Shown here piece after piece: positions 7,621 to 13,096 of a stretch of DNA of 64,000 nt. The notes under the pieces were generated by a model that ran no database searches, was not told where the DNA came from, and was given only the letters and a program-made list of their open reading frames with translations. A program made the position numbers and the translations under genes. The stretch covers positions 62,001-126,000 of the forward strand of contig JAGFIV010000041.1 in the NCBI GenBank assembly GCA_024103275.1. The letters are read 5' to 3'. Positions within the stretch are counted from its first letter, which is position 1, and every line of letters starts with the position of its first letter. The DNA is from Flavobacteriales bacterium. Lineage in GTDB: Bacteria; Bacteroidota; Bacteroidia; Flavobacteriales_F; PHOS-HE28.

Positions 7621-7893
7621 ATGAACGAAAGATTCCCGGCATCGGTGAAGGCGGTCCTGTGGTCGTATGATGTGGACAAGCTCGATCTGCAGGCCCATAA
7701 GTCGCACATCATCACAAACGTGCTGAACCTCGGCACCCATGATGCGGTGTCTTGGCTGTTCGCGACCTATTCCCGGGATGAGATCGCTGCCCAGGTGGAG
7801 CATCCAAGACCGGGTGAATGGAACCGGAAGTCATTGAACTATTGGGCACTGGTGTTCGGGCTGGAACCCAAGGTCACAGCGCGGTTCGCATGA
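7621..7893 (+). CDS. DUF6922-type protein, putative antitoxin of an AbiEii-like pair
   Basis: The 90-residue protein contains the DUF6922-like pattern: SYDVDKLDLQAHKSHIITNVLNLG, then a W-LFATYSRDEI segment and SLNYWALVFGLEP. In Bacteroidota, small proteins of this type commonly sit directly upstream of AbiEii/AbiGii nucleotidyltransferase toxins. Here the stop codon overlaps the start of such a gene (ATGA at 7890-7893), as expected for a translationally coupled antitoxin-toxin pair. This ORF is intact although the toxin gene is destroyed. The antitoxin role is inferred from context, not from a known motif. Confidence 0.7.
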   Translation: MNERFPASVKAVLWSYDVDKLDLQAHKSHIITNVLNLGTHDAVSWLFATYSRDEIAAQVEHPRPGEWNRKSLNYWALVFGLEPKVTARFA

Positions 7894-8392
7894 TCCATTG
7901 GTCCGTGCTGGATAACGAGCGGCAAGCGGCCTTGCCGCGATTGCGGTTTGCGCAGGCACAGCACTTCTACTTGGCGGGCGGAACCGCCTCTCCCAACGCA
8001 GGGTCTCCGCCTCGGGACCCTGCGGTTCCTCGGCCTCAATTCAGTGCTGAAGCCCAGGTGACGCAGGGTCCCTTTCAGGAGACCCTGCGCGAGGGGAGGG
8101 GAAGTTGGCCGATGTGGCCGACATCGGATGCATGAAGTTGTCCGACATCACAGGGCGTGCGGCCATGAAGGACTATGTGGACCTTTACTTCATCCTGCAA
8201 CGCATCCCGCTGGAGAAGTTGTTGGAACCATGCAGCCGTAAGCTGCCCCGATTGGATCGCACGCTGATCTTGAAGTCGTTGGTTTTCTTTGACGACCTGA
8301 TTCCGGAGCCCATTCTGTTTGCCCCAGGGCAGCAGGTGACATTTGACCGCGTGAAAACCTACCTGCGCGATCAGGCCAAGCGTGCATCTTGA
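7890..8392 (+). pseudogene. AbiEii/AbiGii-type nucleotidyltransferase toxin, central core replaced by a palindromic repeat
   Basis: Two ends of one AbiEii-like gene are recognisable. The first 33 codons read MIHWSVLDNERQAALPRLRF then AQAQHFYLAGGTA, ending inside the nucleotidyltransferase GGTA motif. The C-terminal part resumes near 8102 in a different frame with LADVADIGCMKLSDITGRAA, then MKDYVDLYFILQR, and ends at a TGA at 8390-8392. The roughly 110 residues expected between them, including the HR-x-S-x-D-x-D catalytic part, are absent. In their place is a ~108-base copy of the repeat found around the transposase at 11.5-12.0 kb. The toxin cannot be functional. The last bases overlap the putative TTG start of the MOSC gene. 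Confidence 0.85.
7991..8098. repeat. REP-like palindromic element, unit A (inside the toxin gene)
   Basis: Outer inverted repeats CGCAGGGTCTCC (7997-8008) and GGAGACCCTGCG (8078-8089) bound the unit. The left arm folds with GACCCTGCG at 8016-8024, and the right arm pairs CGCAGGGTC (8062-8070) with GACCCTGCG (8081-8089), giving two adjacent hairpins. Ends and hairpins match units B, D and F near the RAYT gene; the middle is more diverged. Confidence 0.88.
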
Positions 8393-11091: not shown

Positions 11092-11253
11092 ATGGCCAAA
11101 AAGGACGTCACAAAAAGGGACCTGCTGAAGGTGGAACGCAGCGCCGTGCGCGAGGAACGCAAGCAACAAGGTGCGCTGGACGGACGGTTCCGCGAGAAGG
11201 TGGAAAAGAGCAAGAAGACGTACAGCCGCAAGCGGAAGCACAAGGATGAATGA
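11092..11253 (+). CDS. small, highly basic hypothetical protein (53 residues)
   Basis: The product begins MAKKDVTKRDLLKVERSAV and ends KSKKTYSRKRKHKDE. About 40 percent of residues are Lys or Arg, with no hydrophobic core, suggesting an RNA- or DNA-binding or disordered protein. It has a full promoter 58 bases upstream, and a truncated second copy exists at 12223-12345 with mostly synonymous or conservative changes. The 3' end runs straight into REP-like unit B. I do not recognise a named family. Confidence 0.6.
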   Translation: MAKKDVTKRDLLKVERSAVREERKQQGALDGRFREKVEKSKKTYSRKRKHKDE

Positions 11254-11281
11254 ATTTCCCTGCAATGATCCTTCGCTCCTG

Positions 11282-11412
11282 ATCCCCACGCAGGGTCTCC
11301 GCACCCCAGTGATTCCAACGGACCTATGCGGGACCCTGCGATTCCCACATGAGTATTTCGCGTCCAGATTGGGGGCGCAGGGTCCCTTGCAGGAGACCCG
11401 GCGCGAGGGTGG
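11282..11412. repeat. REP-like palindromic element, unit B (full)
   Basis: Outer arms: CGCAGGGTCTCC at 11289-11300 and GGAGACCCGGCG at 11392-11403 (one T-to-G change breaks the right arm). It is nearly identical to unit F at 12424-12554 over more than 100 bases. It lies between the small basic ORF and the half unit C. Confidence 0.88.
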
Positions 11413-11418
11413 GACTTC

Positions 11419-11480
11419 ATCCCCACGCAGGGTCTCCGCTCCAAGTGATTCAAAAACACTCAGGCGGGACCCCTGCGTAT
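11419..11480. repeat. REP-like element, unit C (left half only)
   Basis: CGCAGGGTCTCC at 11426-11437, then a spacer with CAAAAACACTCAGG, then GCGGGACCCCTGCG. Only the left hairpin is present. The spacer matches half unit E at 12365-12423, so C and E form a separate sub-class. It ends a few bases after the RAYT stop codon, i.e. at the 3' end of the transposase gene. Confidence 0.82.
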
Positions 11481-11486
11481 CCCGAC

Positions 11487-12050
11487 CTACCCCAGCACGT
11501 CATGGTAATGCGTGAGCGGCGCAGGGCCGGAATCGCCCTGCAGGTAGAACCCCATGCTGGAATGGGGATAGTCGATGGCGTTTTCCGCCAAGGACCACTT
11601 TCCCGAAACGGGGTTGGCGTGGATGTAGTCCAGCTTTTGTTCCAGCATCCGCCGATCAAGGCATTCGCGGATGTCGGTAGAGGTCTCGAAAACCCGATGG
11701 AGCTGGCCTCGCGCGGCATCTCCCTTGCGCACGGCCGTGCGTAGCCTGAGCAATGTACCCGACCGGCCGGCCGCCTTCAATCGGGTTACGATTTCATAAG
11801 CGAGGAACCGCTTGGCGTTCCCCAACAGTGCGTTGATACCTGCACCTTCCGGTGCGTGGATCAACAGGTGGACATGGTTTGGCATGATGACATAGCCCAT
11901 AATCCGGAAGCCCTTGTTGTGCGCCAGATGCATCCAGGTGTAGATGTGGTCATGGCAGGCGGTCTGTTCGATCAACGGCAGCCATCTATAGCACGTGAAC
12001 GTGCAGAAGAAGATGGCGCCATCGGTGTGTTGCGCCCTGCGGACCGCCAT
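11487..12050 (-). CDS. REP-associated tyrosine transposase (RAYT, Y1_Tnp/IS200-like fold)
   Basis: The 187-residue protein has the single-strand DNA transposase (HUH) core: GAIFFCTFTCYRWLPL near the start, then MPNHVHLL with the metal-binding His pair H59 and H61. A candidate nucleophilic Tyr (Y142) lies in QKLDYIHANPVSGKW, and the C-terminus has YPHSSMGFY. This matches Bacteroidota RAYT proteins. RAYTs nick and join single-stranded REP hairpins and are thought to spread REP sequences. Matching palindromic repeats lie directly on both sides (C at 11419, D at 12087). The start at 12050 is chosen because codons further upstream translate the repeat itself. Confidence 0.92.
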   Translation of the reverse strand: MAVRRAQHTDGAIFFCTFTCYRWLPLIEQTACHDHIYTWMHLAHNKGFRIMGYVIMPNHVHLLIHAPEGAGINALLGNAKRFLAYEIVTRLKAAGRSGTLLRLRTAVRKGDAARGQLHRVFETSTDIRECLDRRMLEQKLDYIHANPVSGKWSLAENAIDYPHSSMGFYLQGDSGPAPLTHYHDVLG

Positions 12051-12086
12051 TGCGACAAGGTAAGCAGAAAGATTTCGTTCTTGTTT

Positions 12087-12220
12087 TCCCCACGCAGGGT
12101 CTCCGCCCCTCCCCCAGTGATTCCAACGCACTTATGCGGAACCCTGCGATTCACACAAGAGTCTTTCGCGTTCTTATCGGGGGCGCAGGGTCCCTTGCAG
12201 GAGACCCTGCGCGAGGGTGG
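12087..12220. repeat. REP-like palindromic element, unit D (full), 5' of the RAYT gene
   Basis: Arms CGCAGGGTCTCC (12093-12104) and GGAGACCCTGCG (12200-12211); the inner right hairpin GCGCAGGGTC / GACCCTGCGC is perfect. It resembles B and F but with about 15 percent differences by eye. Its right edge (GAGGGTGG) abuts the truncated copy of the small basic gene. Confidence 0.88.
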
Positions 12221-12222
12221 AA

Positions 12223-12345
12223 TTGGAGCGCAGTGCCGTGCGCGAAGAACGCAAGCAGCAAGGTGCCCTGGACGGACGATTCCGCGAGAAAGTGGAAAAG
12301 AGCAAGAAGACGTACAGCCGCAAGCGGAAGCACAAGGATGAATGA
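12223..12345 (+). pseudogene. 5'-truncated duplicate of the small basic gene at 11092
   Basis: The sequence encodes LERSAVREERKQQGALDGRF followed by REKVEKSKKTYSRKRKHKDE and a TGA. It matches residues 14-53 of the 11092 product; the two differ at roughly ten mainly third-codon positions and continue identically through the bases after the stop codon (AATTTCCCTGCAATGATCC). The first 13 codons and the promoter are missing; the copy begins exactly at the right edge of repeat unit D. A TTG at 12223 is in frame, but no promoter or ATG is present. Confidence 0.82.
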
Positions 12346-12364
12346 ATTTCCCTGCAATGATCCT

Positions 12365-12423
12365 CATCCCCACGCAGGATCTTCGTTCCAAGTGATTAAA
12401 AAACACTCAGGCGGGACCCCCTA
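12365..12423. repeat. REP-like element, unit E (left half, degenerate)
   Basis: CGCAGGATCTTC at 12373-12384 followed by AAGTGATTAAAAAACACTCAGGCGGGACC in two parts. It matches half unit C with a few changes in the arm, and is followed directly by full unit F. Confidence 0.78.
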
Positions 12424-12554
12424 ATCCCCACGCAGGGTCTCCGCACCCCAGTGATTCCAACGGACCTATGCGGGACCCTGCGATTCCCACATGAATATTT
12501 CGCGTCCAGATTGGGGGCGCAGGGTCCCTTGCAGGAGACCCTGCGCGAGGGTGG
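12424..12554. repeat. REP-like palindromic element, unit F (full)
   Basis: Arms CGCAGGGTCTCC (12431-12442) and GGAGACCCTGCG (12534-12545). It differs from unit B at only about two positions by eye, one of which restores the right arm. After it, 12555-12677 holds no gene or repeat that I can recognise. Confidence 0.88.
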
Positions 12555-12677
12555 ACCACCAAGGCCGCACCCGTTCAGGCAAGGTCGCTGTGGTCCGGTG
12601 GGTTACGGTATGTGGTATTGCGAACGACGCGGCGGTCGCACCGGCGCCAGTTGGCCGTACTTGATCCGCGGCCCGCG

Positions 12678-12703: not shown

Positions 12704-13096
12704 ATGACCGCCGAGCTGCACGACATCTTCATCGACGGGAAGAAGGCCAGCCCCGGCCTGCCCGATGGCATGAAGAACTACCTGATCGACATCGACGGCA
12801 CCATCTGTGAGGACATCCCCAACGAGGAGCCGGAACGCATGGCCGACGCGGCGGTGTTCAACGGGGCCGTGGAGGCCTGCAACGGCTGGTACGACCAAGG
12901 GCATGTCATCACCTTTTTCACCTCGCGCACGGAAGAGCACCGGGCGGTGACCGAGGCCTGGCTGAACAAGCACGGCTTCAAATACCACGGCATCCTCTTC
13001 GGCAAACCGCGCGGCGGCAACTACCACTGGATCGACAACCACCTGGTCAGTTCAGCTTTGTTCAAGGGGTCCTATTCGGGTTTAGAATCAGTCTGA
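12704..13096 (+). CDS. HAD-superfamily phosphatase-like protein (often annotated phosphoheptose isomerase)
   Basis: The 130-residue protein carries the HAD motif I as LIDIDGTICEDIPNEEPERM, motif II as ITFFTSRTEEH, and GKPRGGNYHWIDNHLV near the end. Bacteroidota homologues are frequently labelled phosphoheptose isomerase, but the motifs are those of a small HAD hydrolase; the substrate is not known. From memory, homologues continue with a longer, basic and acidic tail after the NHLV motif. Here the protein ends 14 residues later (SSALFKGSYSGLES plus V), so the tail appears shortened or replaced. Confidence 0.82.
   Translation: MTAELHDIFIDGKKASPGLPDGMKNYLIDIDGTICEDIPNEEPERMADAAVFNGAVEACNGWYDQGHVITFFTSRTEEHRAVTEAWLNKHGFKYHGILFGKPRGGNYHWIDNHLVSSALFKGSYSGLESV

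What the first reader, a model, noticed from the sequence alone, without database searches (positions are those of the whole stretch)
11282..12554. RAYT transposase embedded in a cluster of palindromic REP-like units
A RAYT gene is flanked on both sides by a repeat of about 130 bases with outer arms CGCAGGGTCTCC / GGAGACCCTGCG and two inner hairpins. I count full units B, D and F, half units C and E, and a further full unit inside the toxin gene at 7991-8098. All face the same way. RAYT-REP modules are described mainly in gammaproteobacteria; the two-hairpin unit and the half units here would define a Bacteroidota form, with the half unit perhaps the minimal mobile piece.
Basis: partly seen in the sequence, partly recalled or inferred. 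Interest (0 to 1): 0.7.

Follow-up and report, generated by a model that had tools for sequence, protein, structure and literature searches.

The report
Bacteroidota RAYT with bulged-hairpin REPINs
The repeats are real: they are pairs of small DNA hairpins that travel with a single-strand DNA transposase in the Bacteroidota, a little-described branch of the known RAYT/REP partnership with its own hairpin design, and in some genomes the transposase gene seems to have been copied together with its hairpins.

Summary
A RAYT-type HUH/Y1 transposase (11487-12050, minus) lies among three full units (B, D, F), two half units (C, E) and a distant unit (A). Each unit is two hairpins in inverted orientation, the REPIN/BIME layout. 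A half unit is one such hairpin (REP). In the own genome the repeat is sparse: this cluster plus about six sites elsewhere. The same hairpin design flanks this RAYT clade across Bacteroidota: a variable self-complementary stem, GTC/GAC, one unpaired base (mostly T), 3 bp and a 3-nt loop. A 48-sequence RAYT clade has it in 41; RAYTs outside have it in 3 of 38 (Fisher 1.4e-13). Outside the genus, hairpins occur in 6 of 7 genomes with the clade and 8 of 231 without. Stem sequence follows the RAYT tree. The canonical GT[AG]G foot is missing (1 of 93), replaced by a C-rich foot. The sister genome has no repeats here; homology stops exactly at the outer edges of B and F. So this is a RAYT-REP system in the broad sense, not gammaproteobacterial-type. 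Quentin et al. 2018 already reported Bacteroidetes RAYTs with 'atypical' structures, so it is a new variant, not a new kind. Mobility of the half unit is not shown.

The parts
11487..12050 (-). RAYT (REP-associated tyrosine transposase), 187 aa; NHVH and YIHANP motifs
   Evidence: PF01797; NF047646 64.8 bits, below its cut-off of 80; AlphaFold pLDDT 90, best PDB match 4er8 TnpAREP bound to REP, E 3.3e-8; start checked
11278..11412 (+). Unit B: REPIN (REP+ about 11289-11341, REP- 11375-11404)
   Evidence: homology to sister genome G002 stops at 11279
11417..11483 (+). Half unit C: single REP hairpin with long loop
   Evidence: z -4.7
12086..12220 (+). Unit D: REPIN directly upstream of the RAYT start (REP- at 12183-12212)
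12224..12364 (+). Duplicated 3' part of the neighbouring small gene, 5' end lost at the edge of unit D
   Evidence: 95% identical to 11132-11272
12364..12420 (+). Half unit E: degenerate single REP
   Evidence: 93% to C over 57 nt; no stable fold
12420..12554 (+). Unit F: REPIN (REP+ about 12431-12483, REP- 12517-12546)
   Evidence: 98% to B; homology to G002 resumes at 12554
7985..8104 (+). Unit A: diverged REPIN with short loops (REP+ 7996-8025, REP- 8061-8090), inside a broken AbiEii-like gene
   Evidence: (z -5.9)
11092..11253 (+). Small basic protein gene (53 aa), left neighbour of the cluster
   Evidence: orthologue lies about 40 bp from the HAD gene in five relatives
12554..12601 (+). 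Last ~16-17 codons of a secreted-protein gene that is whole in G002
12704..13096 (+). HAD-like hydrolase gene, right neighbour of the cluster
   Evidence: PF24694

Best explanation
This is a RAYT-REP system of the Bacteroidota. The RAYT recognises a single-stranded hairpin (REP) made of a short C-rich 5' foot, a lineage-specific stem, an invariant GTC/GAC, one unpaired base, 3 bp and a 3-nt loop. Two REPs in inverted orientation make a REPIN (units A, B, D, F); a lone REP is a half unit (C, E). By analogy with E. coli TnpAREP and IS608, the protein would cut and rejoin ssDNA next to the hairpin, so REPs, REPINs and sometimes the RAYT gene with its flanking REPs are copied to new places. In this species the module sits between a small gene and a HAD gene, where the sister species has another gene and no repeats. 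Shown: anatomy, clade-wide association, stem co-variation with the RAYT tree, co-occurrence, sharp edges of dispersed doublets, repeat-free sister site. Inferred: ssDNA recognition, strand choice, cleavage and active transposition.
For: HUH/Y1 protein; best profile match 4er8 and best fold match 4er8. Hairpin density is 6.06/kb within 100 nt of RAYTs against 0.054/kb at 2-4 kb, with shuffles near 0. RAYT tree of 86: the 48-row clade (96/92) has core hairpins in 41, against 3/38 outside. Outside the genus, hairpins occur in 6/7 genomes with the clade and 8/231 without, p 8.6e-8. Within the genus, median 14 against 3 exact hairpins, p 3.5e-4; reversed-pattern control near zero. Stem class needs 6 changes on the RAYT tree, shuffled 13.9. 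Inverted doublets in +- order are spaced 7-17 nt in 33 of 34. G241 doublets share GTCC...GGAC ends with unrelated flanks. G002 homology ends at the outer edges of B and F; five other relatives have the two neighbour genes about 40 bp apart.
Against: The own genome holds few copies and most lie in this one cluster, unlike high-copy canonical REPs. The canonical GT[AG]G foot is absent (1/93), and the position of E. coli W94 is F in the A2 alignment. Some genomes keep many hairpins without a clade RAYT (G002 35, G065 53, G028 38). The cluster is a replacement with loss of a gene, not a clean insertion. No movement was observed.
Confidence: 0.88

Rival explanations
1. The hairpins are the ends of an IS200/IS605-like insertion sequence: the RAYT gene with its flanking hairpins moves as one unit, and the solo units are decayed ends.
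For: G266 has three RAYT copies (97-98.6%) whose homology begins at the hairpin foot with unrelated upstream DNA. G011 has two copies 3.2 kb apart, 95% identical, matching from hairpin edge to hairpin edge.
Against: In most genomes examined, clade RAYTs are single or strongly diverged copies. Dispersed doublets without a gene are frequent and have their own exact ends. The protein's best match is TnpAREP, not IS200 transposase. Local duplication or conversion could also explain the copies.
Confidence: 0.3
2. The hairpins are transcription terminators or other regulatory palindromes that merely sit near the RAYT.
For: Many lie between genes: 19 of 41 sites outside long ORFs against about 19% of random points. 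Strong folds.
Against: The stem sequence differs by RAYT lineage but is shared within it. There is 100-fold enrichment next to one RAYT clade only. The asymmetric unpaired base and C-rich foot are conserved over families.
Confidence: 0.05
3. The cluster here arose only by local tandem duplication and recombination, with no current transposition; the RAYT is a relic.
For: B/F 98% and the duplicated 141-bp gene end show local duplication. Few copies elsewhere in the genome.
Against: The RAYT is an intact ORF with all motifs. Its close relatives carry dispersed copies (G004 106, G032 88, G006 84 hairpins).
Confidence: 0.35

Closest known systems
E. coli TnpAREP (RAYT) with Y/Z REPs and BIMEs
   Same: HUH/Y1 fold (4er8 best match); hairpin with an irregularity in the stem that matters for recognition (PMC8266576); inverted doublets; RAYT gene flanked by its repeats
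   Different: No GTAG foot but a C-rich foot; F in place of W94; different hairpin core with a 3-nt loop; low copy number here; RAYT sometimes multi-copy
TnpAY1 subclass 2.6 (Bertels group 5), Quentin et al. 2018 PMC6006769
   Same: Mostly Bacteroidetes; HuH-to-Y distance about 82 (here 84-85); NHxH and YIHxNP; flanked by 'atypical' structures without GT[AG]G, with copies elsewhere in the genome
   Different: Motif WQ in 2.6; F at that position in all 23 rows of A2, although two genus members (G006b, G032) keep W. The WQ-bearing RAYTs of the same genus have none of these hairpins. Whether Quentin's set includes this clade could not be checked
REPINs (Bertels and Rainey 2011, PMC3116915)
   Same: Two inverted REPs with a short spacer; dispersed with sharp ends
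   Different: Other phylum, other REP, other foot; tens per genome here
IS608 / ISDra2 (IS200/IS605)
   Same: Unpaired base in the stem (T17 in IS608; PMC8266576); HUH/Y1 fold
   Different: Closer in fold and profile to TnpAREP; gene-free doublets abundant
TIRYT/TIRtrons (PMC3733652)
   Same: RAYT-like genes flanked by non-GTAG repeats, some self-complementary and in dimers
   Different: The reported shared motif GGGGWSAS was not seen as the common feature here; not formally aligned

Membership tests
RAYT / TnpAREP (broad) | HUH motif and catalytic Tyr in a Y1 fold | tested here: met
   NHVH, YIHANP; PF01797; 4er8 best fold match, E 3.3e-8
RAYT / TnpAREP (broad) | NCBIfam NF047646 curated cut-off (80 bits) | tested here: not met
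   64.8 bits
RAYT / TnpAREP (broad) | Gene flanked by palindromic repeats that also occur elsewhere in the genome | tested here: met
RAYT / TnpAREP (broad) | One gene per REP type, not moving as a unit | tested here: inconclusive
   single in the own genome; three near-identical copies in G266, two in G011
GTAG-tagged REP | GT[AG]G at the 5' foot | tested here: not met
   1 of 93 hairpins; C-rich foot instead, position -3 is C in 29/35 loci
GTAG-tagged REP | Stem with mismatch or bulge | tested here: met
   one unpaired base 3 bp from the loop; hairpins were selected as palindromes, so pairing counts are biased
REPIN/BIME | Two REPs in inverted orientation with a short spacer, dispersed | tested here: met
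TnpAY1 subclass 2.6 | WQ motif | tested here: not met
   F invariant at that position in A2
TnpAY1 subclass 2.6 | HuH-Y distance about 82, Bacteroidetes, atypical flanking structures | tested here: met
   84-85; hosts
[quoted passage not shown] membership of the published tree | not tested
IS200/IS605 | Whole element with both ends moves to clean sites | tested here: inconclusive
   copies with shared hairpin edges in G266 and G011, but no clean empty site for them

The most novel reading that the evidence does not exclude
This clade is a still-mobile intermediate between IS200-type insertion sequences and domesticated RAYTs: the gene transposes together with its bulged-hairpin REPs as ends, and also spawns gene-free REPINs, using a C-rich guide foot in place of GTAG.
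Probability: 0.3. Interest if true: 0.7.

Novelty: new variant of a known kind. Interest (0 to 1): 0.5.

Why it matters
It gives a precise, searchable definition of the Bacteroidota REP: stem, GTC/GAC, one unpaired base, 3 bp, 3-nt loop, C-rich foot. It also shows that its stem changes along the RAYT tree. That makes two open questions testable: how a RAYT chooses its cut site without GTAG, and whether RAYTs can still move with their repeats.

Tried and rejected
Rfam scan of the window: no match. Distant RAYTs of the genus as sources of the hairpins: none of 21 loci has one. Empty site of a G241 REPIN in its own genus: no synteny at that locus. IS3 gene in G266 as a clean target: the other half of that gene is absent, so no empty site. 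Idea that the repeat is confined to the window: rejected. Idea that the half unit is the minimal mobile piece: not shown. The TIRYT motif GGGGWSAS did not explain the hairpins. Bertels et al. 2017 is not held.

Full report
Observation. The repeats are real and more than chance. B, D and F form one family (B/F 98%), C and E are shorter relatives, A is a diverged copy, and all except E fold as ssDNA far better than shuffles. The RAYT ORF is intact, 187 aa, on the minus strand; its ATG at 12050 lies 36 bp from unit D. Its predicted structure (pLDDT 90) has TnpAREP bound to REP (4er8) as the best PDB match, ahead of ISDra2 and IS608 transposases; the profile search agrees.

What the unit is. Each unit holds the same asymmetric hairpin twice, first in one orientation (GTCTCC..GGGAC) and then in the other (GTCCC..GGAGAC). 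This is the layout of a REPIN or BIME. The half units are single hairpins. In B-F and C/E the first hairpin has a longer loop than in relatives; unit A and nearly all relatives have short loops.

Hairpin design. Near RAYTs from Cytophagales, Chitinophagaceae, Flavobacteriales and others fetched by protein similarity alone, the same design recurs: outer stem of 5-8 bp whose letters vary but stay complementary, GTC/GAC (GTT/AAC in a few), one unpaired base (T 59, A 21, C 11, G 3; the C readings come mostly from the opposite strand), 3 bp, and usually a 3-nt loop of G-N-A type. The 5' foot is C-rich (position -3 is C in 29 of 35 loci) and the 3' flank is not conserved; GT[AG]G occurs in 1 of 93. 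The covariation counts are biased because hairpins were chosen as palindromes; the unbiased evidence is the enrichment near the gene, 6.06 per kb within 100 nt against 0.054 per kb at 2-4 kb, with shuffles near zero.

Association with one RAYT clade. In a tree of 86 RAYTs a supported clade of 48 (96/92) has the hairpin in 41; outside it is in 3 of 38. Twenty-one more distant RAYTs of the same genus and class, many of which carry the WQ motif of subclass 2.6, have none. Stem class needs 6 changes on the clade's tree, shuffled mean 13.9.

Co-occurrence. In 45 genomes of the genus the exact pattern CAGGGTCN{6,36}GACCCTG occurs in 44; the reversed control is nearly empty. Genomes with the clade RAYT have a median of 14, those without 3 (p 3.5e-4; 24 against 5 among genomes at least 90% complete, p 0.003). 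A covariance model finds 106 hairpins in G004, 88 in G032, 84 in G006 and 10 in the own genome. Among 238 genomes of the class outside the genus, hairpins occur in 6 of 7 with the clade RAYT and 8 of 231 without (p 8.6e-8). Some RAYT-less genomes keep many (G065 53, G028 38, G002 35), as would follow from loss of the gene.

Dispersal and edges. In G004, G010, G066 and G241 the hairpins are spread over the chromosome; neighbouring pairs in +- orientation are 7-17 nt apart in 33 of 34 cases. Five doublets of G241 are alike from GTCC to GGAC and unrelated outside, so the dispersed unit there is the doublet with its feet. Many single hairpins also exist, so the half unit can be neither excluded nor proved as a mobile piece.

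Own site. In G002, the closest relative by the HAD gene (89%), homology to the window covers the small gene up to 11279 and resumes at 12554, exactly the outer edges of B and F. In between G002 has a secreted-protein gene and no hairpins; the window keeps only its last codons. In five other relatives the small gene and the HAD gene are about 40 bp apart. The module is thus lineage-specific, and its arrival went with loss of that gene and duplication of the small gene's end.

Does the RAYT itself move? G266 has three copies (97-98.6%) whose homology starts at the hairpin foot with unrelated upstream DNA, one abutting an IS3-type transposase fragment (the IS3 naming is by eye). G011 has two copies with matching ends at hairpins. 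[quoted passage not shown] These copies suggest otherwise for this clade, but duplication is not excluded.

Known or new. Quentin et al. 2018 reported Bacteroidetes subclass 2.6 with atypical structures lacking GT[AG]G. The present clade shares the distance between motifs (84-85) but has F where 2.6 has W. The detailed hairpin, its C-rich foot, doublet form and stem co-evolution were not found in the papers that could be read. I rate it a new variant of the RAYT-REP kind.

Noticed in passing
window 7621-8392: DUF6922 gene followed by a broken AbiEii-like nucleotidyltransferase gene that contains REPIN A; part of the gene is missing around the unit.
   Followed up: partly
window 12224-12364: A second, 5'-truncated copy of the small gene's 3' end (95%) sits inside the RAYT cluster; the junction with unit D shows a short shared GGTGGA.
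   Followed up: partly
L173, L174, L175 (G000 C30:9843, C125:715, C132:22940): Three copies of another REP subfamily (CCGCAGCGGTCTCGCGCAGCGGACCCTGCGG) in the own genome with unrelated flanks and no cognate RAYT found.
   Followed up: partly
L137-L143: Mucilaginibacter and Pedobacter RAYTs outside the clade have a different flanking hairpin with a GTGNGGACAC core.
   Followed up: no
L178 1614-1672: A 45-58 bp sequence beside a G241 REPIN recurs at up to 98% identity at many places in genomes of that genus; a separate dispersed repeat.
   Followed up: no
L048 (G022), L050 (G032), L201 (G004): Long local arrays of REP hairpins next to RAYTs or alone, up to 13 hairpins in a row.
   Followed up: partly
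L134, L135: RAYTs with the same hairpin design in a Deltaproteobacteria and a Parcubacteria MAG, suggesting horizontal transfer or misbinned contigs.
   Followed up: no
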